This document shows positions 1 to 22,531 of a DNA stretch of 45,205 nt, one piece after another. Position 1 is the stretch's first letter; each line of letters starts with the position of its first letter. Origin of the DNA: Actinomycetota bacterium (GTDB lineage Bacteria; Actinomycetota; CADDZG01; JAHWKV01; JAOPZY01); NCBI GenBank assembly GCA_035765775.1, contig DASTWV010000049.1:1-45205 (forward strand). The letters run 5' to 3'. Made by a program: the position numbers and the translations under genes. The notes under the pieces were generated by a model. The model was given only the letters and a program-made list of their open reading frames with translations, did no database searches and was not told the DNA's origin.

Positions 1-258
1 CCGTCAAGGGCCTTCGGTCTGCTTCGCAGACGGCCCTCGGTTGGTCCGGGAGGGGAAAGGCAAAGGCGAAGCAAACCGCCGCTTGACAGCCCGACCCTCA
101 TAGGTGTCCCACTGCCCGGGACGAATGTCCCCGACCTCAGCCCGAGGGGCCGCATGTGCGGACCCGGAACGACGGCGTGGGTCCGGGTGCCCCTTGACCC
201 GGCAGATGTTCGTGTCAGAGCCCGGACCCGGACCGCCGCCCACATCATCACGGGGAGG
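1..258. repeat. Left copy of inverted repeat shared with window's right end
   Basis: Bases 1-134 are the reverse complement of 45045-45178 with a single mismatch (position 115). Similarity continues inward to about 258 (right copy to about 44961), interrupted by roughly 40 extra bases in this copy. The outer edge holds a hairpin: AGGGCC (7-12) pairs with GGCCCT (32-37), and GTCTGC (17-22) pairs with GCAGAC (26-31) around a TTC loop. No transposase lies beside it. It may be a dispersed noncoding repeat at which the assembly broke, or the terminal repeat of a larger element. Bases 259-389 hold no gene that I recognise. Confidence 0.9.
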
Positions 259-389
259 TTTCTTCGCCCTGTAAAGCACAGGTCTTCCCCCTGACTTGCA
301 CCACAACCCAACCCATGAAGCGCGCGACATGAAACCAGGCACGCCCGCTGGGTAGAAGTGGAGGGCACACTGCGAAATGGAGCCCAATT

Positions 390-758
390 GTGGACAATCA
401 TCGTGCGGCAGAGTTGCTCGATCATGAGGAGGAGCGCCTGAGCGGGCTCCGGCACACCACCGAGCTGGAATCGCTGGCGGCGGGCTCAGAGATGGACAGC
501 ATCTCCGAGATCGCGGACTACGACCAGCACCCCGGCGACGTGGCGACAGAGACCTTCGAGCGGGAGAAGCGGCTCTCCATCCTCGAGACGGTCGAGGCCG
601 GGCTCGCCGACGTCGCGGCCGCCCGGGCACGCCTCAAGGCGGGCACCTACGGCATCTGCGAGGCGTGCGGCAGGGCGATCGGGGACGAGCGCCTCGCCGC
701 CCAGCCTGCCACCCGCTTCTGCCTCGAGGACCAGGAGAAGGCCGAGATCAGGCATTGA
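390..758 (+). CDS. DksA/TraR-family C4-type zinc finger protein with one Cys missing
   Basis: This 122-aa protein fits the DksA/TraR family, whose members bind RNA polymerase in the secondary channel and tune transcription, often with ppGpp. The N-terminal part (about 1-85) is acidic and helical. It ends in the family motif TYGICEACGRAIGDERL (86-102), followed by RFCLEDQ (109-115). Cys90, Cys93 and Cys111 have normal zinc-finger spacing (CxxC-x17-C), but the fourth position (114) is Asp, so the site would be a C3D or three-Cys site. The start is GTG, since an upstream ATG at 377 is out of frame. The gene stands alone, and a strong hairpin follows at 860-890. The family call is firm and the function inferred. 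Confidence 0.85.
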   Translation: MDNHRAAELLDHEEERLSGLRHTTELESLAAGSEMDSISEIADYDQHPGDVATETFEREKRLSILETVEAGLADVAAARARLKAGTYGICEACGRAIGDERLAAQPATRFCLEDQEKAEIRH

Positions 759-859
759 TCCGCGGCGCTTCGCCGGGGCAGTCTTGTACCGCACAGGTTG
801 CGTAGACCACGATGGCCTCGGCGGCGTTGCCCTGCGGCGTCTGAGATCTGCCCGGCGAA

Positions 860-890
860 CGAGAGGGCCCCCACCGCGAGGGCCCTCTCG
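860..890. terminator. Perfect 11-bp stem terminator between convergent genes
   Basis: CGAGAGGGCCC (860-870) and GGGCCCTCTCG (880-890) are exact inverted repeats around a 9-base loop. The hairpin lies between the stop of the DksA-like gene (758) and the stop of the convergent leftward gene (906), so it could end transcription from both sides. It has no clear T-tract, which is common in high-GC actinobacteria. Confidence 0.75.
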
Positions 891-905
891 AACTCGGGCT
901 GCCGG

Positions 906-1175
906 TCAGACGTCGCGCGCGATCTCGTAGACGTTGGACGAGCGGAACTCGATGGTGGCATCCGCGGGCACCTTGGCGTTGGCTGCGACCCGCAATGCCG
1001 CTTCCTCTGAGTCAAAGACGAGGAAACTCATGGCGTTCTGGCCGGAAGCCGCCCAGGTTCCCCGGACGAAGCCGGGAACCGTCTTCATGAACGCCACGAG
1101 CCCGTCCAGCTCGCGGTCCTGATCGCTCGGGGAGAACCCGGGCTTGAGTGATGCCTGAAATACCAGTGCGTGCAT
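906..1175 (-). CDS. Small dimeric alpha/beta barrel protein (ABM monooxygenase-like)
   Basis: This 89-aa protein has the size and pattern of the antibiotic-biosynthesis-monooxygenase/YdhR-like ferredoxin fold: an N-terminal strand (MHALVFQASL), a helix (DRELDGLVAFMKTVPGF), then WAASGQNAMSFLVFDSEEAALRVA. Members oxidise aromatic polyketides or act as small stress-related dimers. The start at 1175 follows a strong GGAGGAG; an in-frame upstream ATG at 1199 would place that ribosome-binding site inside the gene. It is the last gene of a leftward set, 51 bp after the O-methyltransferase. The fold is fairly secure; whether it is an oxygenase or a non-catalytic member cannot be told. Confidence 0.7.
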   Translation of the reverse strand: MHALVFQASLKPGFSPSDQDRELDGLVAFMKTVPGFVRGTWAASGQNAMSFLVFDSEEAALRVAANAKVPADATIEFRSSNVYEIARDV

Positions 1176-1226
1176 CGTGCTCCTCCTTTCGTCCCTCACG
1201 GGACAGTTCGGTTCCTGGCGGCTGCG

Positions 1227-2249
1227 TCAGATGGCGACAGCTTCGACTGCACTGATGGGCCCTGCGGTGTGGATGACGCGCCCGGGCTGGAATCCGGTGG
1301 AGCGCAGGAGGGCTCGCAAGTCCGAGGGCCGCCGCTCCTGGCCACCGGTCACGGCCAGCATGAGGACATCCAGGGTCTGGCTGACCAGATCGACCCCCTC
1401 GTCAGGCAGGAGGTGTTCGATGATCAGCATGGTGGCGCCCGGCTGCGCCGCACGGCGGATCGCCCCGAGGATGGCGGCGGCTTCCCGGTCCCGCCAGTCG
1501 TGCAGGACCTCCATGAGCAGGTAGAGATCGGCGGCGGGGAGCGGATCGTGGAAGAAGTCACCGGCTTGGGTACGGAGCCGTTCGGGATGGGGACCGGCGC
1601 CGCCGACTACTTCGGGAAGGTCGAATAACACGCCCCGGGCTTCCGGGGCGACCGCCAGGATGGCGTGCAGCAGATGACCCCGGCCGCCGGCGATGTCGGC
1701 GATGGTTCCGAACGGCCGGAAGTCGTAGGCGGCCAGGAGGTCGTCGATGTCCGCCCGTGCCTTGTCTGCCATTGCCTGGCCGAACACTGCGGCTTCCTCT
1801 GCGTGGCCTTCGAGGTAATGAAAGAAGCCCGCGGGGTCGACGCATTCCGCGCCGGGGCGGCCGGTGGCGGCGGCGTGATCCAAAGCGGCGATTGCCGCCC
1901 GCGCCACCGGAAGGCCATTGATGCGGGCGAACGACCGCATCGACCGCGGGTGGTCGCTGCACAGCAAGCGGGACACCCGGTTATGCCGGAACCCCTCACC
2001 GGCGCACTCGAAGATGCCATGGGCGCAGAGGAGCCGCAGGAGGCGTTCGAGCGCCATCGCGTCCACCTGGCAGGGACCCGCCAGGGCTGCTGCCGGGAGC
2101 GCCTCGTCGCCAAGATGGTCAGCAACGCCGACCTCCGCCACCACGTGCAGGGCTCGTGAGGGAACCACCGCCTGGGCGAGTCCCCAGATGACCTCATGGG
2201 GCGCCCGGGTGCCCGGCTCCGTCGCTGGTTCCGTTGTGGTTGCTGCCAT
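1227..2249 (-). CDS. SAM-dependent O-methyltransferase (Methyltransf_2 type)
   Basis: This 340-aa protein has the two-part build of acetylserotonin/hydroxyneurosporene-type O-methyltransferases: a helical dimerisation and winged-helix half (about 15-110, HEVIWGLAQAVVPSRALHVVAE) and a Rossmann SAM domain. The SAM-binding motif IADIAGGRGHLLHAI spans about 183-197, an acidic ribose-binding FDLPEV follows at about 209-214, and LMEVLHDWRD (245-254) carries the His (250) that acts as general base in the family. The length is normal. The start is chosen at 2249, preceded by GGGAGG, rather than at 2282. It lies downstream of the LuxR regulator and glycosyltransferase and probably methylates a hydroxyl of a small aromatic or polyketide-like product. 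The substrate is unknown. Confidence 0.88.
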   Translation of the reverse strand: MAATTTEPATEPGTRAPHEVIWGLAQAVVPSRALHVVAEVGVADHLGDEALPAAALAGPCQVDAMALERLLRLLCAHGIFECAGEGFRHNRVSRLLCSDHPRSMRSFARINGLPVARAAIAALDHAAATGRPGAECVDPAGFFHYLEGHAEEAAVFGQAMADKARADIDDLLAAYDFRPFGTIADIAGGRGHLLHAILAVAPEARGVLFDLPEVVGGAGPHPERLRTQAGDFFHDPLPAADLYLLMEVLHDWRDREAAAILGAIRRAAQPGATMLIIEHLLPDEGVDLVSQTLDVLMLAVTGGQERRPSDLRALLRSTGFQPGRVIHTAGPISAVEAVAI

Positions 2250-2341
2250 TTCCGCCTCCCTTTCTCGACGTGGCGTGTACACCAGCGACGATAGGAAGGA
2301 GGCTGCAGCAGGTCATCCGCCGGATTGCTCAGGCGGCGTAC

Positions 2342-5200
2342 TCATTTCTCGCCGTGGATGGTGCCCTGCCGCTCGAACCAGAGCGCAACCTGGGCCCGGT
2401 TGCGGAATCCCAGCTTGGTCAGGATGTGCTGCACGTGGTTCTGTGCGGTGCGCTCCGAGAGCACGAGCCGGTCGGCGATCTCCCGGTTGGAGAGACCCTG
2501 CGCCACAAGCCCGGCTACCTCCCGCTCCCGGACGGTAAGCGGCCCGGGGGCCGAGCGCTCCACCGCATCGAGCACGTCCTGCATCCGCCCGGCAACCGCA
2601 TGCAGTCTCAGCGCCCGTGCGGCGTCGAGATGCTCAGCGGCGAGTGCCCGCGCCCCTTCCCGATCGCCCGGCGCGTCCCGGAGGAGCAGGGCCGCAGCCT
2701 CATCGCTGGCGCTCTCCAGCTCGTATCCCGCGGCACCGGCCTCCCGGCTGAGCTGGCGGGCCTGGCCGAGGAATGCCGCGGCGGCGTCACGCTGCCCCAG
2801 ATGCAGGGCGGCCTTCCCAAGCCAGAGTTCCACCGGACCCAGGTAGGTGGCCGCCCCCAGACCGCAGGCGACGTGATGGCCGCGGTAGGCCTGCAGCCAG
2901 TCCTGGAGTACCTGGACATCCTCGGGTCGGCCCAGCGCGATGGCCGTCTCGAGCCCCAGAGCGGCGCCCAACAACACGACATGGGGGGGCGGGCGCCAGT
3001 GCGCCACTGGCCCGAGGGAACGCCAGAGGTCGCCTGCCTCTCCGAGCCGTCCCTCACCCGCCAGGTCATGGGCCAGGGCGAGATCGGCGATGAAGGGCGG
3101 ACGTCCCCCCGGCGTGCTGCTCTCCAGCGCGGTCCGGGTTACGCCGTCCAGCCCGGCGTGCCGGGCAATGCCGGACAGGACCGCGGCGCGCCGGTTCGGA
3201 GGCTCCGGATGGTCGCCCCACGCCGCCAGGCCGATCGCCTCGTCGCTCAACCGGCGCGCCTCGGCCAGCCGGCCCTGCGCCTGCGCCAGCACCGCCCGGG
3301 TGTGAAGCACCTGGTACCGGGCGAGCGGGCTGCGCAGCGCATCGGCCAGCACCGCCGAGCGATCCAACTCGCCCGGGATCCGTCCCAATCGGCCTTGTTG
3401 GAACAGGACGTCCACCCGGCAGAGCCGACCCCGGAGCTCGACATCGGCCCGCCCGGCGGCCTCCCCCAGCCGGGTCAGGCGGTCGGCCACTTCCTCTCGC
3501 TCCGCCAGTTTCCCGGGGTGGGCGGCCACGACCTGCCGTGCCCGGAAGGCGGCCACCCGGGCAGCCAGATCACCCGACGCCTCGGCAACGCGCACCGCCT
3601 CGGCGCTGGCCTCCTCTGCCGCGTCATTGTCGGGGAGGAAGATGAAGGTCTCGGCGAAACGCGCCGACAGCCGGGCGCGGAGGGGAGTCGGATCGGGGCC
3701 GAGGCGGTCGAGCACCTCCCGGCACATCTGACGCGTGGCAAGGTCGAAGCCTGGTTGGCCGACCGGATCCAAGACCAGGGCCGCCTCGACCACCAGGTGC
3801 GGACGGGCTTGGTCCGGTGCCGACTCAAGGGCAGACATCCGGCAGCGATGGCAGTCGCCCAGCGCGCCGGCCAGGTTGTGCGCCCGGGCCGCGCCGAGGA
3901 GCAGCCTGCTGCGCGCCTGGGCGTCGATCTCGGCTCCTCCGACCGACGCGGCCTGCTCGTAGAGCCGGGCGGCGTGTTCGTACCCCAACTGCGCCATGGC
4001 CAGGTCGGCCGCACGCTCGAGCCAGGAGGCGGCGAGGCCGCGGGAGCCACCACTGGCCGACGCCGCCCGGTGCCGGGCAATCTCGAACAGGTGGGGGCCG
4101 GCCTCGCTGCCGTGGCGGGCTTCGAGCGCCTCGGCGGCGCCCCGGTGCAAGGCGTGCTGCACCGCGGGCGAAATCCCTTCCAGGACAGCGCCGTGGACCA
4201 GGGCATGGGCGAACCGGTGGCTGGCGGGCGGGAGGCCCGCCTGCAGGAGGCCTGCGGCGACGGCCGGTGCGAGCGCCTCCAGGCACGCGCCTTCTGCGAT
4301 GGCCAAGACGCCCGCCAGCACCGAGGAGTCGAACTCCCTCCCCAGCACGGCCGCCCCCTGCACCGCGGTCTGGGTAGCCTCAGGCAGGCGGGCAAGCCGG
4401 GGGCGTACGGCGGTGCCCAGGTGACCCCGCCCCCCGGCCCGTTGCTCGCCCAGGCTGATGGCCGCCTCCCGCACCGAAAAGGGATTGCCGCCGGTCAGCG
4501 CCGTGATCCCGGCGAATTCCGACTCGGTCACCTCGGTGCCGGTCAGCGACTCCAGCTCCCGGCGGACGCTGTCCGGCTCCAGGCCCACCAGCGGGAGGTC
4601 GTGGACCCGGCGTAGCCCGGCCAACCGCTCCACCAGGCCGCCGGGGGCCGGATCCCGGGTGTTGATCCAGACCAGACAGCGCGCGGCGGGCAGGCCCAGG
4701 GCCAGCTGCCGAAGCAGGAGAAGCGACGCCTCGTCGGCCCAGTGCATGTCCTCCAGGAAGATCGCCAGGCGCTCCTCGGCCGCCGTCGCCGCAAGCACCC
4801 GGCTCACCGCATCGAAGACCAGGAAGCGTTCCTCAGCGCCGGTCTCCACCCACTGGGCTTTGGCTCCCTCACCCCACAGCCGGCGAAGCGGCGCAGCCAC
4901 CGCCTGGTCGCCCGCGATGCTCAGGATGCGGGTCGAGGTCTGCAGGGCTCGGAAGACCTGCCTCCAGGGCCACAGCGGAGGGGTGGCCACGCTGTCGTCG
5001 GCCATCCCCCAGGCCACCGCGAACCCGCGCCCGGCAGCCCGCCCCGCCGCTTCCTCGGCCAGGCGGGTCTTGCCGATGCCCGCCTCCCCGCGGCACAGCA
5101 CCACCGCCGCCTCGCCGGCTTCGGCGCGTGCCAGGGCGGCATCCACCACCGCCAATTCACGCTGCCGTCCGACGAACTCGGTACGCCGCGGTGCCTGCAT
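2342..5200 (-). CDS. Giant LuxR-family regulator with N-terminal AAA ATPase (LAL type)
   Basis: This 952-aa regulator has the LAL (large ATP-binding LuxR) plan. An N-terminal ATPase carries Walker A GEAGIGKT (38-45) and a Walker B region [11 protein letters not shown] (about 146-156). A long helical TPR-like middle follows, and a C-terminal LuxR helix-turn-helix (about 890-945) contains [20 protein letters not shown] and [17 protein letters not shown]. Such proteins activate secondary-metabolite or sugar genes in response to ligands bound by the ATPase/TPR part. The start ATG at 5200 begins just before the conserved EFVGRQREL; the ribosome-binding site is weak. It lies 52 bp downstream of the glycosyltransferase and 92 bp upstream of the O-methyltransferase, so it may regulate its own operon. 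Confidence 0.9.
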
Positions 5201-17115: not shown

Positions 17116-17481
17116 ATGAACGTCTCCGTCTACTTCAACCCGGCCTGCAGCAACTGCCGGACCGTCGAGGGGATCCTCGGGGAGCGCGGCGTCGATATCC
17201 ACTACGTCCGCTACCTGGAGAAGGCCCCGACCCGTGCCGACCTGGACCACGTCCTGGAACTCCTCGGTACCGATGACCCGAGGGAGATCGTGCGGGAGAA
17301 GGAGCCGGTCTACCAGGAGCTGGGGCTTGCCGGGGCAGGCCGGGAGGCGCTGCTGGATGCCATGGTGGCCCATCCCATCCTCATCCAGCGCCCGATCGTG
17401 ATCCTGGGCGACCGGGCAGTGGTGGCACGGCCCCCCGAGCTGGTTCTGGGACTCATCGACTCCACCACGACCGCCGAATGA
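17116..17481 (+). CDS. ArsC/Spx-like thioredoxin-fold reductase
   Basis: This 121-aa protein is an ArsC-family (glutaredoxin-fold) member. The active-site loop NPACSNCR holds Cys11, Cys14 and Arg15, and the family core HPILIQRPIVILGDRAVVARPPE carries the conserved Arg and cis-Pro. Relatives reduce arsenate with glutathione or mycothiol, but many are uncharacterised. No ars genes (arsB/acr3, arsR) lie nearby, so arsenate reduction is not assured and a general thiol-redox role is equally possible. GGAGG four bases before the ATG supports the start. It is convergent with the next gene after a 39-bp gap. Confidence 0.85.
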   Translation: MNVSVYFNPACSNCRTVEGILGERGVDIHYVRYLEKAPTRADLDHVLELLGTDDPREIVREKEPVYQELGLAGAGREALLDAMVAHPILIQRPIVILGDRAVVARPPELVLGLIDSTTTAE

Positions 17482-17520: not shown

Positions 17521-18030
17521 TCAGTACGCGTTCTTGATGGTGAAGTAGGAACCTCGGATGGTGCCGGCCAGCTTCGAATTCTGCCGGGCGAACTTGAACT
17601 TCGAGGCGAGTTCATCGGGGATCGGCATCCCTTCGCAGAGCTTGAAGCCGACCGCCCGCTTGCCGGCGTCGTCGATGGTGTACATCACGTTGATCGACAG
17701 GCCGCTCTCGTAGAACACGTAGGCCATGCGGATGCCCTCGACTTCGAAGGCTGTGGCTTCGAGCGGGGGTGACTGGATGACGATGTCGCGTTCCTCCTTG
17801 AGGATCCGGTGCACCCAGTCGACCGTCCTCTGAGCGTTGCCGGCAGGCGTCACCGTGAAGACGTGGCCGTACTTGTTCCGGAAGTAGCGGGCCTCGTTGG
17901 CACGGAGCCCAGCGAGGGCCGGGGCGAACGGCGACGACTCCAGCCCGGTGGTGGAGACGGTCTGGAAATCCACCACCTGGTCGAGGTCGGAGTGGTCCCC
18001 GTCGGTATCACTCGCTTCCATACCGGTCAT
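17521..18030 (-). CDS. Hypothetical protein, unrecognised
   Basis: This 169-aa protein has no signal peptide or membrane segment that I can see. The first 20 residues are acidic (TDGDHSDLDQ); the rest alternates strand- and helix-like segments (YGHVFTVTPAGNAQRTVDWV, VEGIRMAYVFYESGLSINVM, FKLCEGMPIPDELASKFKF) and ends in a basic YFTIKNAY. I do not recognise the family. The start is ambiguous (ATG 18030 or 18021; a longer frame to 18087 exists) and no strong ribosome-binding site is seen. It diverges from the unknown 264-aa gene at 18206 with about 175 bp between, and the two may be functionally linked. Coding bias and length support a real gene. Confidence 0.6.
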   Translation of the reverse strand: MTGMEASDTDGDHSDLDQVVDFQTVSTTGLESSPFAPALAGLRANEARYFRNKYGHVFTVTPAGNAQRTVDWVHRILKEERDIVIQSPPLEATAFEVEGIRMAYVFYESGLSINVMYTIDDAGKRAVGFKLCEGMPIPDELASKFKFARQNSKLAGTIRGSYFTIKNAY

Positions 18031-18205
18031 GGTAGCGGCACTGCGGGTCTGCGTATGGGTCAATCGGGCGTGACAGTCGGACCGCACCTGCTAGACAATG
18101 CGGAGCGCATACCCGGGGGTGGGTGGTACCCGTGCGGAGCCCCCTGGGCATCTCGGCGCCCAGGTCCGCAGATCAACCGAGTCGAATACAAGAAGGGAGC
18201 CACCG

Positions 18206-19000
18206 ATGCAATATGACAATTGTCAATATTCGAACATCATCTGGATCGCCAAAGAGAGCACTCAGTTCAAGGCATTGAAAGAAGGGCTGACGGGGCGTGA
18301 CCCGGTCGCAGCAGTGGACACCTTCTTCACGACCCTTGGTACGGCGCAGCAGGCGTTCAAGAAGGCGCTCAAGCCAGGGGCGGATCTCACCTCGCTGCTT
18401 GCTCAATACCAGAGCGCGACGGGGATCATCTCAACGAGGGATTACACACTCCCAAGTGAGCCAGAACCGGGGAATCCGAGTGAGAACAGCTTTTTCCTTG
18501 ACCTGATCGAGGGCATCGCAGGCGCGGCATCAACGGAAGTCGGCATCGGCATCGCCTTGTACACGTTGATCATGGACGTGATCGAGTGGCTCGAGCTGAA
18601 GGTCCACGTGCGGGGCATCCTGATGAACGCCGGTACCTCGAAGCTCGACGACATTGACTTGGAATGTTTCGGCCAGCTAACGGTCGTTCCCTTCTCCGTC
18701 TCCATCCCGGGCATGAAGAGCATCTTGAACCCCGTTACGAAGAAGAATGTCGACTGTGTTGGCTTCGCCTTCTTCGGCGGTGTGGGGAGCGACTGGTCCG
18801 CCCAGGGGTTCCAGTTCTTCGTGCGGGCGAGCCCAGATGTCGATGCACGCCTGCAGTACGCCACCTTCCGCAAGGGCATCGGTCCAAGCTCCGGGGACGA
18901 GGTGGAGACCGTGTACCGGACCGGCGACGTCATCGGCGTGCTGGTGGACAAGGGCCTGTTGAATACCGTGTGCCTTTTCTGCCGCAACTGGCGAGACTGA
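18206..19000 (+). CDS. Unknown 264-aa protein of low GC, possible horizontal acquisition
   Basis: The gene is visibly less GC-rich than its neighbours, especially over its first 300 bp, with AT-rich codons rare elsewhere in the window. A helical Lys-rich N-terminal part (1-95) is followed by a hydrophobic Gly/Ala/Ile stretch (about 105-130, EGIAGAASTEVGIGIALYTL), then a strand-rich C-terminal half with FGQLTVVPFSVSIPGMKSIL, FAFFGGVGSDWSAQGFQFFV and terminal CLFCRNW. There is no signal peptide. GGGAG precedes the ATG. I do not recognise the family. The helical, hydrophobic and beta-rich arrangement recalls membrane-inserting toxins, but that is a weak inference only. Confidence 0.65.
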   Translation: MQYDNCQYSNIIWIAKESTQFKALKEGLTGRDPVAAVDTFFTTLGTAQQAFKKALKPGADLTSLLAQYQSATGIISTRDYTLPSEPEPGNPSENSFFLDLIEGIAGAASTEVGIGIALYTLIMDVIEWLELKVHVRGILMNAGTSKLDDIDLECFGQLTVVPFSVSIPGMKSILNPVTKKNVDCVGFAFFGGVGSDWSAQGFQFFVRASPDVDARLQYATFRKGIGPSSGDEVETVYRTGDVIGVLVDKGLLNTVCLFCRNWRD

Positions 19001-19044
19001 TAGCCAGAGCTAACCGACACCGAGCTGCACTGCTGGGGTGAGGT

Positions 19045-20271
19045 TCAGATCTGTCCGGCGTGGACCGTGCCGGGCAAGGCCGTTCCTGGATGGAGGCCTT
19101 GGGCAATCTCCAGGAGAATGCTCAGCGGGTAGAAGACCTGCCCGAGGTCGGGATTTGCCGAACTGGGCAGGGTCACGACCGGCTTGATCGCCGCCTCGTC
19201 GAGCACCTGTTCATAGGGACGGAGCAGCGATCCCGCCCAGGACGGAACCACGGCCGCCACTCCCACCGCCGCGAGGCCCATTTCCGCGAAGTTCTGAGCG
19301 AAGGGCGGTGATGAGGCGTACGGTGCCGCCGAAGCGCTGAGCCTAAGCGCAGCTCCCTCACCAATCGTCGTTCGTATGTAGGCCACCACCTCCGGCGGAG
19401 CCTTGCCTGCCCGCCGCCCTGCAGTCGTCCAGCCTTGATCGACGTGCGCCCGGGCCCACTGGATCCGTTCCGGGTTCATCCATTCCAACAGGACCAGCTC
19501 CGCGGTCTCGCCCGCAAGCCGGCACATGGCCGCACTGACTGCAGCCATGCCGAGGCGCACCTCGGCGCCCAGTAGCCGGCGAAGGTCGGCGAGGTACGCC
19601 GCCGTGGCGGCCTCCGGGGTGGGAGATGCGCCGGGGCCTACGGCCACCACGAGCCGGCTGAGGTCGAGTCCGCGTCCAGCCAGCCACCCTGCGGCTTCCT
19701 CGGCGGTGCGCCGATCGCAGGCAAGGGGGCCGATGCCGATCCGGATGGCGGTGGTTGCCGCCAGCATCGCCGCGGCCGCCTCCAGGCCGTCGGACTCGGG
19801 CCGGTCGTCGGTCCACACCGTTGTGTACCCCAGCCTCTCGGCCGTATCAGCAATGGTCCCAGCCAGTGCCAGGTCACCGATGGCAGGGATGGCGAAGCCC
19901 CGCGGGCCTGCGGGCGCTGCGGGCGGGGCGTCGGCCGGCGGCTCCTCCTCGGGGTCGACGACGGACCCGGCGCTGCCATCGGCGGCGATGATCGGGAGCC
20001 CATGCTCCACCCAGGCGCGGATGCCGCCTTCCAGCGTGTCAATCCGGAAGCCCTGCGCCTCGAGCAGCTCGGCCGCCTGGAGGCTACGGGGCCCGGTCCG
20101 GCAGGTGACGACCACCAGGCGGGTAGGGTCCACCTCGCTGAGCCGATCGGCAAGCTCGTGAAGCGGGACGTGGACGGCCCCATCGATCCGCCCCGCCGCC
20201 CATTCATTGCTGCGGCGCACGTCGAGGAGCTGGACATCCCGCTGGCGCTCCTGCAGTTCTTCTGCTTTCAC
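19045..20271 (-). CDS. Rhodanese fused to a luciferase-like (LLM) oxidoreductase domain
   Basis: This 408-aa protein has two parts. Residues 1-95 are a rhodanese domain: LLDVRRSNEWAAGRIDGAVH, then VVTCRTGPRSLQAAELLEAQ with the sulfur-carrying Cys57 in a normal CRTGPRS loop. A Pro/Ala/acidic linker (about 97-125) leads to a C-terminal TIM-barrel-like domain resembling LLM flavin- or F420-dependent oxidoreductases (FAIPAIGDLALAGTIADTAE, RLGYTTVWTDDRPESDG, AAVGVAAVV near the end). The GTG start overlaps the upstream MBL-rhodanese stop (GTGA), so the pair is translationally coupled. It may take a protein persulfide and oxidise or use it, but the LLM domain's cofactor residues are too diverged to be sure it is active. 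Confidence 0.8.
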   Translation of the reverse strand: MKAEELQERQRDVQLLDVRRSNEWAAGRIDGAVHVPLHELADRLSEVDPTRLVVVTCRTGPRSLQAAELLEAQGFRIDTLEGGIRAWVEHGLPIIAADGSAGSVVDPEEEPPADAPPAAPAGPRGFAIPAIGDLALAGTIADTAERLGYTTVWTDDRPESDGLEAAAAMLAATTAIRIGIGPLACDRRTAEEAAGWLAGRGLDLSRLVVAVGPGASPTPEAATAAYLADLRRLLGAEVRLGMAAVSAAMCRLAGETAELVLLEWMNPERIQWARAHVDQGWTTAGRRAGKAPPEVVAYIRTTIGEGAALRLSASAAPYASSPPFAQNFAEMGLAAVGVAAVVPSWAGSLLRPYEQVLDEAAIKPVVTLPSSANPDLGQVFYPLSILLEIAQGLHPGTALPGTVHAGQI

Positions 20272-21662
20272 TTCGGTGATCCTTTCCCAGGCCCGGCGAT
20301 GGCCAACCCGCTCCGGGCGGCGTGCGCCCAGTGGTCATCGACCAGCACCACCGGGTGCCCGGCGCGGTCGAGAATGCTAGCGGCGATGCTGGCCCGGAAT
20401 CCGCTGGCGCAGTGAACCCAGAGGGTATCGGCGGGCAGTCCGGCGATGCTGTCCGGGAGATCCTGGAGAGGAACGTGGAGGGATCCCTCGATCCAACCCC
20501 GGGCACGCTCGTCGTCGCGCCGCACGTCGAGAACCATCGGGGCGGGGACTCCCGTCCGGGAGACCGTCTGCGAGGCGCGGGCGAGCTCAGGGAAATCCGC
20601 TGCCGGGTAGTGGGCGAGCGATGTGCCCGCGGCCAGGGCTAGCCGAGGGCCGGTTGCCGCGCCATCGAGGTCGTCGATCCCGATGCGGGCGAGGGCACGC
20701 TGCGCCTTGTTCACCTGGGACATCGAGTCGCCGACGAGGGTGATCGGCCGGCCCCAGGGCACCACCCAGCCGAGATAGGTGGCGAACGAATCGCCCAGCT
20801 CGACGGAGATGGTCCCGGGCACGTGGCCGCCGCTGAAGAGCCGGCGCTCGGCGAGGTCGACGACCCAGCCTCCCTCCCGGATACGGCGACGCAGGCCCTC
20901 GCCATCGAGCGGTTCAGGGGCCTGCAGGGCGAAGGGGGCCGGCCCGGCCTGGTTCATCGGAGCCATGTGGGTGTAATACCGGGGGTACGCGGTCAGGCCA
21001 TCCAGCAGCCGCGCCACGAAGGTCTCCTCATCGGGGATGGTGAGCGCCATGTTGGTGGCGCGTTCCCGGCCCATCGTGGCCGTCGCTGCCCCCGAGGATG
21101 GCGCCGACGAACAGAAGCTGCCGAACCCGTGGGTGGGCCACACGGCGACGTCGTCCTCCAGTTCTGCGGCCAACCGGCGCACCGAGCGGTACTGGGCACG
21201 GGTCAGTTCCTGGGTGGCCTCCGGGCCGAGGAGGTCTGTGCGCCCAACCGTGCCGTACAGCAGCGACCCACCGCTAAACAGGGCGGCGGGCTGCCCGGGC
21301 TCCGACACGAGGTAGGCGGCATGGTGGCGGGTGTGACCAGGGGTGGCCATGACCCGCACTTGCAGGCGACCGACACGGATCACGTCGCCGTTATGCACAG
21401 CCCGGTGCTCGAATGCAACGTCGTTGCCGTCCGGAATCACGTACGCCGCCCCCGTGCGGCGGGCGAGATCGAGGCCGCCGCTGACGTAGTCATTATGGAT
21501 GTGGGTCTCAGCAACATGCGTGTAGCGCACCCCGGCGGCCTCCGCGGCCTCCATCATCCGGTCGATGTCGCGCTGGGGGTCGATGACCAGCGCGGCTTCA
21601 CCGTCGTGGACCAGGTAGCTGCGGTCCCCGAGTGCCGGAGTCTCGATCGTCACCACGTCCAC
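20268..21662 (-). CDS. MBL-fold persulfide dioxygenase-like protein with two rhodanese domains
   Basis: This 464-aa protein has an ETHE1/CstB/BLH-like metallo-beta-lactamase domain (1-240) followed by two rhodanese domains. Metal motifs include ETHIHNDYVSGG (52-63), TPGHTRHHAAY and WPTHGFGS. The first rhodanese domain (about 245-345) has lost its active Cys (LVGDSMSQVNKAQ), while the last keeps it in HCASGFRAS. Relatives oxidise glutathione- or CoA-persulfide to sulfite and move sulfane sulfur. Paired with the rhodanese-LLM protein and a TSUP exporter, it would detoxify sulfide or persulfide. The GTG at 21662 starts it; the divergent GntR gene shares its 59-bp promoter region. Confidence 0.88.
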   Translation of the reverse strand: MDVVTIETPALGDRSYLVHDGEAALVIDPQRDIDRMMEAAEAAGVRYTHVAETHIHNDYVSGGLDLARRTGAAYVIPDGNDVAFEHRAVHNGDVIRVGRLQVRVMATPGHTRHHAAYLVSEPGQPAALFSGGSLLYGTVGRTDLLGPEATQELTRAQYRSVRRLAAELEDDVAVWPTHGFGSFCSSAPSSGAATATMGRERATNMALTIPDEETFVARLLDGLTAYPRYYTHMAPMNQAGPAPFALQAPEPLDGEGLRRRIREGGWVVDLAERRLFSGGHVPGTISVELGDSFATYLGWVVPWGRPITLVGDSMSQVNKAQRALARIGIDDLDGAATGPRLALAAGTSLAHYPAADFPELARASQTVSRTGVPAPMVLDVRRDDERARGWIEGSLHVPLQDLPDSIAGLPADTLWVHCASGFRASIAASILDRAGHPVVLVDDHWAHAARSGLAIAGPGKGSPK

Positions 21663-21682
21663 GGCAGGTCACCCCCCCCACG

Positions 21683-21721
21683 GTTATTGTCATAACATTC
21701 GAATATCAGTATCATACATCC
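21683..21721 (+). promoter_or_regulatory. GntR promoter, probably leaderless, with overlapping palindromes
   Basis: On the plus strand a -35 TTGTCA (21687-21692) and a -10 TATCAT (21710-21715) are 17 bp apart, close to the sigma-70 consensus. The expected transcription start falls about seven bases later, on the GTG at 21722, so the mRNA would be leaderless. GTTAT-tgtc-ATAAC (21683-21696) overlaps the -35, ATTCGAAT lies at 21697-21704, and GTAT-c-ATAC (21709-21717) covers the -10. This AT-rich island is shared with the divergent sulfur operon and is the likely GntR operator. Confidence 0.65.
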
Positions 21722-22531
21722 GTGCACGCACTACGCAGCCCGAGCGAGGACGAGCCCCGGCCCCTGGACCGGTCCAGCCCCCTGCCGTTGTGGGCGCAAC
21801 TCTTGAGTGAGCTCGAGCGCCGCCATGCAGCAGGTGCCTTCGCCAGTCAGTTCCCGACCGACAAGGAGCTGACCGAGAGCTATGCGGTGAGTCGCCAGAC
21901 GGTGCGCGACGCCGTACGCAAGCTCGGCGACCGGATCGGTCTCGACCGCCAGCGGGGCCGGGGCACCTTTGTGCGCGCCGAGTTCCAGCAGCCGGTGGGC
22001 GCCCTGTACAGCCTCTTCCAGGCGATCGAGGCGCAGGGTGTCGAGCAGCGCAGCCTGGTGCTGGCCAAGGACCTGCGCCAGGATGCGGTTGCCGCTGAGG
22101 ATCTGGGCATAAGCGCCGACGCCACGGTGGTCTACCTGGAGCGGCTCCGCCTGGCGGGGGGGCTACCCCTGGCAATGGACCGGATCTGGCTACCGGCGGA
22201 TCTGGCCGAGGCGGTCCTGGCCGCGGACTTCGACCACGCCGCCTTGTACGACGAACTGTGGAGCCGGTGCGGTGTGCGCCCGAGCCGGGGTGAGGAACAC
22301 ATTCGACCGGTGGTCCCTGAACCGGAGGAAGCCCACGCCCTCGGTATAGAGGCGGGGGGCGCGGCGTTCAGTGTCGAGCGGCGCACGTGGGTGGGCGACC
22401 GCCTGCTCGAGCGGCGCCACACGCTGGTCCGGGGGGACCGCTACGCCTTCGTCACCTCGTGGGCCACCGGCGGCCCGCATGCGGCCGGGGCGCAGCTATC
22501 CCTTGTCGGCGACGGCCGGCTCGGTTCGTGA
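21722..22531 (+). CDS. GntR-family regulator, HutC/UTRA subfamily
   Basis: This 269-aa regulator has the GntR winged-helix domain near the N-terminus (PLWAQLLSELERRHAAGAFA, FPTDKELTESYAVSRQTVRD, LDRQRGRGTFV). A UTRA effector domain follows (about 100-255), with YLERLRLAGGLPLAMDRIWL and YDELWSRCGVRPSR, then VERRTWVGDRLLERRHTLV. The GTG start is placed right at the predicted transcription start; an upstream in-frame ATG at 21632 would run into the divergent gene. It sits between the leftward MBL-rhodanese/rhodanese-LLM pair and the rightward TSUP exporter, so it probably controls both. A GntR of this class next to sulfur genes suggests a small ligand, not identified here. Confidence 0.88.
   Translation: MHALRSPSEDEPRPLDRSSPLPLWAQLLSELERRHAAGAFASQFPTDKELTESYAVSRQTVRDAVRKLGDRIGLDRQRGRGTFVRAEFQQPVGALYSLFQAIEAQGVEQRSLVLAKDLRQDAVAAEDLGISADATVVYLERLRLAGGLPLAMDRIWLPADLAEAVLAADFDHAALYDELWSRCGVRPSRGEEHIRPVVPEPEEAHALGIEAGGAAFSVERRTWVGDRLLERRHTLVRGDRYAFVTSWATGGPHAAGAQLSLVGDGRLGS

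What the first reader, a model, noticed from the sequence alone, without database searches (positions are those of the whole stretch)
19045..20271. Rhodanese fused to a luciferase-like oxidoreductase domain
I know of no well-described enzyme joining a sulfur-carrying rhodanese domain (active Cys57) to an LLM-type barrel. The natural guess is a protein that loads sulfane sulfur on Cys57 and passes it to a flavin- or F420-dependent site for oxidation or C-S cleavage, as LLM enzymes act on alkanesulfonates. Translational coupling with an MBL-rhodanese protein backs a sulfur role.
Basis: partly seen in the sequence, partly recalled or inferred. Interest (0 to 1): 0.65.

Follow-up and report, generated by a model that had tools for sequence, protein, structure and literature searches.

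The report
Rhodanese fused to a degenerate barrel
One uncultured actinobacterium joins a sulfur-carrying rhodanese domain to a luciferase-family barrel; the join is real, but the barrel has lost its cofactor-binding residues, so it is more likely a retired enzyme kept as a structural or docking part than a new sulfur-oxidising enzyme.

Summary
A 408-aa ORF on the MINUS strand (20271..19045) joins a rhodanese domain (Cys57 in CRTGPR) to an LLM-type (beta/alpha)8 barrel (AlphaFold2 pLDDT 91; best PDB match the F420-dependent reductase Mer). It overlaps a CstB-like MBL-rhodanese gene by 4 bases. The linker is open, keeps a remnant of the ancestral rhodanese tail, and codons 89-151 contain no ATG, GTG or TTG start, so the barrel is not a separate gene.

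The proposed mechanism is not supported. I found the fusion in one genome only. All 46 homologous barrels examined, including a paralogue in the same genome, are unfused. The fused copy is uniquely altered at three F420-site positions: Pro182 at the non-prolyl cis-peptide site (40 V, 4 A, 2 L elsewhere; V-to-P cripples Mer), Ser-Ala for Gly-Pro after beta5, Glu263 for Asn after beta6. Its tree branch is 3-4 times longer than its sisters'.

Relatives hold the same locus with a standalone rhodanese, no barrel, and the same GntR and TauE neighbours. Best reading: a sulfane-sulfur operon whose rhodanese exchanged its tail for a duplicated, degenerate F420-type barrel. New architecture, modest interest; the barrel's present role is inferred, not shown.

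The parts
19045..20271 (-). Rhodanese::LLM-barrel fusion gene, 408 aa, GTG start
   Evidence: ORF; Pfam Rhodanese and Bac_luciferase
20005..20265 (-). Rhodanese domain, aa 3-89; catalytic-loop Cys57 codon at 20101-20103 (CRTGPR)
   Evidence: Pfam E 1.1e-17; CX4R motif; PDB rhodaneses by phmmer
19906..19983 (-). Linker aa 97-122; first part (ADGSAGSVVDPEEE) aligns with the tail of standalone rhodaneses (DDAGNPGSVEDP), rest Pro/Ala-rich; no start codon
   Evidence: alignment and codon list; low pLDDT 89-112
19087..19905 (-). Compact LLM-type (beta/alpha)8 barrel, about aa 123-395
   Evidence: AF2 pLDDT 90.8, eight strands; Foldseek to Mer; profile match to Mer E 3.3e-19
19726..19728 (-). Pro182, at the position of the F420 'backstop' non-prolyl cis-peptide (jMer Val62)
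   Evidence: aligned; 46 unfused homologues have V (40), A (4) or L (2)
19531..19536 (-). Ser246-Ala247 in place of the conserved Gly-Pro in the loop after beta5
   Evidence: G in 44/46 and P in 44/46 unfused homologues
19483..19485 (-). Glu263 in place of the conserved Asn at the end of beta6 (jMer position 178)
   Evidence: N in 43/46 unfused homologues
20268..20271 (-). GTGA stop/start overlap with the upstream gene
   Evidence: sequence
20268..21662 (-). CstB-like MBL protein with rhodanese domains, 464 aa; catalytic rhodanese loop CASGFR; iron-ligand Asp replaced by Gly132
   Evidence: Pfam; phmmer to 3tp9 and 3r2u; alignment
21632..22531 (+). Divergent GntR/UTRA regulator (ORF as listed; the true start may lie further downstream)
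   Evidence: Pfam; conserved neighbour in L090 and L091
22371..23348 (+). TauE/SafE-type sulfite exporter (ORF as listed)
   Evidence: Pfam E 5e-47; conserved neighbour in L090 and L091

Best explanation
This is the rhodanese of a sulfane-sulfur homeostasis operon (rhodanese, CstB-like MBL-rhodanese, divergent GntR regulator and TauE exporter). Its C-terminal helical tail was replaced, in this lineage, by a second copy of a small F420-type LLM barrel. Inferred working: Cys57 takes sulfane sulfur from a low-molecular-weight persulfide or the coupled CstB-like protein and passes it on (rhodanese chemistry and operon partners by homology); sulfite made from it leaves through TauE. The barrel no longer binds F420 productively and serves as a folded non-catalytic part for docking, oligomerisation or stability. 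Shown here: the fusion, the predicted fold, the neighbours, the paralogy and the loss of three F420-site residues. Inferred: the sulfur transfer, the loss of F420 binding as such, and the barrel's present role.
For: Rhodanese with intact CX4R loop. Operon partners: CstB-like MBL-rhodanese with PDB relatives 3r2u and 3tp9, and TauE. Two relatives (L090, L091) have the same locus with a standalone rhodanese and no barrel. The linker carries a remnant of the rhodanese tail. The barrel groups with the family's standalone copies at 100/100 support, on a branch of 1.02 against 0.37 and 0.24. It changes 12 of 50 otherwise invariant positions, against 0-8 of 50-58 for standalones (Fisher p about 1e-5, rows not independent). 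Pro182, Ser246-Ala247 and Glu263 hit the F420 site. In jMer, V62P lowers turnover from 5700 to 3.2 per min, and position 178 to Glu lowers kcat to 2-7% and raises the F420 Km about sixfold (PMC11094777). The standalone paralogue L002 keeps all these residues and can keep the original activity. A streptomycete circuit of PDO, rhodanese, TauE and regulator is known (PMC7533328).
Against: The barrel is full length and predicted to fold with high confidence, so it is probably kept in some use; but AF2 was helped by an alignment of ordinary homologues and would show the fold in any case. The CstB-like partner lacks the iron-ligand Asp (Gly132, also Gly in L090, L091, L093 and L111), so it may not be a persulfide dioxygenase and the operon's sulfur flow is uncertain. 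Only one fusion sequence exists, so selection on the fused barrel cannot be measured.
Confidence: 0.66

Rival explanations
1. Active bifunctional enzyme: Cys57 passes sulfane sulfur to an F420- or flavin-dependent LLM site that reduces or oxidises it.
For: Fold is LLM; the genome encodes a genuine 2-phospho-L-lactate transferase for F420 synthesis (TIGR01819, 305 bits over 257); sulfur operon.
Against: Three F420-site positions changed only in the fused copy, one of them the mutation that inactivates Mer (PMC11094777). Unfused homologues sit in varied neighbourhoods, none of those examined being this sulfur operon (aromatic amino-acid, nrdR/dUTPase and thiamine gene sets).
Confidence: 0.1
2. 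Recent non-functional fusion: the barrel is evolutionary debris under relaxed selection, carried as a passenger on a working rhodanese.
For: Single genome; branch 3-4 times longer than its sisters; invariant residues lost across the barrel.
Against: About 885 bases without a stop, third-position GC still 0.78, about 49% identity to the nearest standalone kept over the whole barrel; all eight strands predicted.
Confidence: 0.17
3. The barrel changed ligand: its former active-site mouth, with Cys185 and Cys250, now binds another sulfur acceptor such as a thiol cofactor and receives sulfur from Cys57.
For: The protein has only three cysteines (57, 185, 250); 185 and 250 follow beta3 and beta5 near the former F420 mouth; several substitutions fall at the cofactor site.
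Against: Cys250 is conserved in most unfused relatives, so it is not a novelty of the fusion; no direct evidence of any ligand.
Confidence: 0.07

Closest known systems
Single-domain rhodanese of sulfane-sulfur operons (PDO, rhodanese, TauE; e.g. the Streptomyces coelicolor circuit, PMC7533328)
   Same: Rhodanese with CX4R loop next to an MBL-rhodanese (type III PDO-like) protein and a TauE exporter
   Different: C-terminal LLM barrel instead of a short tail; GntR/UTRA regulator instead of a CsoR-like one; MBL partner lacks the iron-ligand Asp
F420-dependent LLM oxidoreductases, closest solved Mer (8qpm, 1z69); NCBIfam TIGR03841, TIGR03620
   Same: (beta/alpha)8 LLM fold; profile and structure matches
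   Different: About 260-295 aa against 321-349 in Mer, below every NCBIfam cut-off, cis-peptide position is Pro, Gly-Pro loop and beta6 Asn lost
Rhodanese fusion enzymes of sulfur metabolism (BpPRF, CstB, CoA-disulfide reductase-rhodanese)
   Same: A rhodanese joined to a partner domain within sulfur metabolism (PDB hits)
   Different: Partner is an LLM barrel with a degenerate cofactor site, a combination not found in the papers searched

Membership tests
Rhodanese (PF00581) | Rhodanese fold above the Pfam cut-off | tested here: met
   64.8 bits against 22.2
Rhodanese (PF00581) | CX4R active-site loop with catalytic Cys | tested here: met
   C57-RTGP-R62
Rhodanese (PF00581) | Sulfurtransferase activity | not testable with these tools
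   Needs protein
Luciferase-like (LLM) superfamily, PF00296 | (beta/alpha)8 barrel of LLM type | tested here: met
   Pfam 45.1 bits over 27.9; AF2 and Foldseek
F420-dependent LLM oxidoreductase | Non-prolyl cis-peptide backstop after beta3 | tested here: not met
   Pro182 at the position of jMer Val62; 0 of 46 relatives have Pro. The cis state itself was not measured
F420-dependent LLM oxidoreductase | Gly-Pro loop after beta5, where the F420 tail lies in Mer | tested here: not met
   Ser246-Ala247; G and P each in 44/46 relatives
F420-dependent LLM oxidoreductase | Carboxamide residue at the end of beta6 | tested here: not met
   Glu263; Asn in 43/46
F420-dependent LLM oxidoreductase | Host makes F420 | tested here: met
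   CofD equivalog TIGR01819 above cut-off; other F420 biosynthesis genes not tested
F420-dependent LLM oxidoreductase | F420 binding and hydride transfer | not testable with these tools
   Needs protein
Sulfane-sulfur circuit (PDO, rhodanese, TauE, CsoR-like regulator) | MBL-rhodanese, rhodanese and TauE together | tested here: met
Sulfane-sulfur circuit (PDO, rhodanese, TauE, CsoR-like regulator) | CsoR/CstR-like persulfide-sensing regulator | tested here: not met
   Adjacent regulator is GntR/UTRA
Persulfide dioxygenase (upstream partner) | 2-His-1-Asp iron site | tested here: not met
   Asp ligand (AcPDO D130, PMC6060420) is Gly132 here and Gly in L090, L091, L093, L111

The most novel reading that the evidence does not exclude
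The fused barrel is not debris: it has changed ligand, and the protein is a new two-domain sulfur relay in which Cys57 delivers sulfane sulfur to Cys185 or Cys250, or to a thiol acceptor held in the former F420 pocket.
Probability: 0.08. Interest if true: 0.65.

Novelty: new variant of a known kind. Interest (0 to 1): 0.36.

Why it matters
It is a clear case of a cofactor barrel being duplicated, fused onto a sulfurtransferase and stripped of its cofactor-site residues while a normal paralogue stays elsewhere in the genome, a clean setting to test what pseudoenzyme barrels are kept for. For annotation it warns that 'LLM class F420-dependent oxidoreductase' would probably be the wrong label. 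It also points to an MBL-rhodanese subfamily lacking the iron-ligand Asp.

Tried and rejected
Separate translation of the barrel: rejected, no start codon in codons 89-151. Widespread fusion: not found in what could be searched; no fused homologue in searches counted as 912 genomes, including 396 of the own phylum and 400 of the phylum of L061, and no plasmid record covering 80% of the query among 72,556. A first peptide-pattern scan of genome contigs with the whole protein found nothing; the barrel alignment found 10 named loci. PF01933 as a sign of F420 synthesis is ambiguous, because it also rings in controls such as E. coli; resolved with NCBIfam. An alignment that included the MBL protein's rhodanese was misplaced onto the barrel and was not used. 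The full-length model gives a low-confidence rhodanese half because it had no relatives there, so domain arrangement is not interpreted. Function from neighbours of unfused barrels: contexts vary too much.

Full report
WHAT IS THERE. The finding's coordinates hold one long ORF on the minus strand, 20271 to 19045, 408 aa with a GTG start; the + strand in frame 1 has stops. Pfam sees Rhodanese at residues 3-89 (E 1.1e-17) and Bac_luciferase (45.1 bits, cut-off 27.9). The rhodanese loop is C57-R-T-G-P-R62. The start codon overlaps the stop of the upstream MBL-rhodanese gene by four bases (GTGA), with AAAGGA a short way upstream.

IS THE FUSION REAL. Codons 89-151 contain no ATG, GTG or TTG; the next possible start, codon 152, lies inside the second strand of the barrel. 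Third-position GC is 0.83 (rhodanese), 0.92 (linker) and 0.78 (barrel), as in the neighbouring MBL gene (0.84). The linker begins with ADGSAGSVVDPEEE, which aligns with DDAGNPGSVEDPNAE in standalone rhodaneses of relatives (L092 and others), before their helical tail of about 50 residues. So the barrel took the place of that tail; a missing stop between two neighbouring genes would not leave this pattern. Reads were not available, so an assembly chimera is not formally excluded.

THE BARREL. With ten relatives as alignment, residues 114-408 model at mean pLDDT 90.8 and pTM 0.89, with eight strands in (beta/alpha) order. Foldseek against the PDB puts F420-dependent enzymes first: Mer 8qpm (E 1.6e-11, TM 0.70), 1z69 and the secondary alcohol dehydrogenase 1rhc; alkanesulfonate monooxygenases come later. 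The family profile also finds Mer first (1z69, E 3.3e-19). The family is compact, about 260-295 aa against 321-349 in Mer. The genome has a CofD equivalog (TIGR01819, 305 bits against a 257 cut-off), so it probably makes F420.

RELATIVES. The own genome has one more copy, unfused and 294 aa (L002). Each of the seven other genomes held for the order has one unfused copy. Searching 396 genomes of the phylum and 400 of the phylum of L061 gave further homologues, and ten named loci came from Actinomycetota and Chloroflexota/Thermomicrobiales MAGs. No barrel ORF checked had a rhodanese in frame. In the tree the fused barrel groups with L002 and the other copy of its family at 100/100, on a branch of 1.02 against 0.37 and 0.24. 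It also shares their C-terminal extension. It is therefore best read as a duplicate within that family that has evolved fast.

THE COFACTOR SITE. In M. jannaschii Mer the non-prolyl cis-peptide Gly61-Val62 after beta3 is the F420 backstop, and V62P lowers turnover from 5700 to 3.2 per min. Changing residue 178 at the end of beta6 to Glu leaves 2-7% of kcat and raises the F420 Km about sixfold. The F420 tail lies between the loops after beta4 and beta5 (PMC11094777). The paper calls residue 178 Gln, while the PDB chain shown reads Asn there; either is a carboxamide. Mapped through the HMM alignment, the fused barrel has Pro182 at the Val62 position, Ser246-Ala247 for the Gly-Pro after beta5, and Glu263 at position 178. 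Among 46 unfused homologues these positions are V 40, A 4, L 2; G 44 and P 44; N 43. Asp258, invariant in all 46, is Glu in the fusion. In a leave-one-out count the fusion changes 12 of 50 otherwise invariant positions, the standalones 0-8 of 50-58 (Fisher p about 1e-5, with the caution that rows are related). F420 binding of the normal kind is therefore unlikely; it was not measured.

THE OPERON. Two relatives of the order (L090, L091) have the same locus: a standalone rhodanese, then the MBL-rhodanese gene (62% identical), a divergent GntR regulator (51-58%) and TauE (64-65%). A third (L111) has the MBL gene at 63%. The MBL protein matches 3tp9 and S. aureus-type 3r2u along nearly its whole length, the CstB type. 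A circuit of persulfide dioxygenase, rhodanese, TauE and regulator controls sulfane sulfur in Streptomyces (PMC7533328). One caution: the iron-ligand Asp of persulfide dioxygenases (D130 in AcPDO; PMC6060420) is Gly132 here and Gly in L090, L091, L093 and L111, while a second MBL-rhodanese of the own genome (L118) keeps Asp. So the partner's dioxygenase activity is itself in doubt.

CONCLUSION. The mechanism offered is probably wrong: the rhodanese half looks active and belongs to a sulfane-sulfur operon, while the barrel looks like a pseudoenzyme. What the barrel does now is not shown.

Noticed in passing
window 20268-21662 (-), Gly132 codon 21267-21269: The CstB-like MBL protein has Gly where persulfide dioxygenases have the iron-ligand Asp; the same in L090, L091, L093 and L111, while a second MBL-rhodanese in the own genome (L118) keeps the Asp. 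A possible non-canonical or inactive PDO subfamily.
   Followed up: partly
L061-L063, about positions 1-4800: In three Chloroflexota MAGs the unfused compact LLM gene follows aromatic amino-acid genes (a PLP-dependent enzyme, TrpA, DAHP synthase; chorismate mutase in L061 and prephenate dehydrogenase in L063), a possible clue to the parent enzyme's substrate.
   Followed up: no
L088 9124-12035: In another relative the unfused LLM gene overlaps a DAO-family (ThiO-like) gene followed by thiG, i.e. a thiamine thiazole gene set.
   Followed up: no
window 17116-17481 (+): ArsC-family (arsenate reductase/Spx-like) protein a few genes from the sulfur operon.
   Followed up: no
window 17521-18087 (-) and 18098-19000 (+): Two ORFs beside the fusion with no Pfam match; GC falls to 0.65 over 18001-20000.
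   Followed up: no
L090, L091, L092, L038, L039 (rhodanese ORFs): Standalone rhodaneses of the order share a conserved C-terminal tail (FMRE[YW]LxxKG...I) with no Pfam domain.
   Followed up: partly
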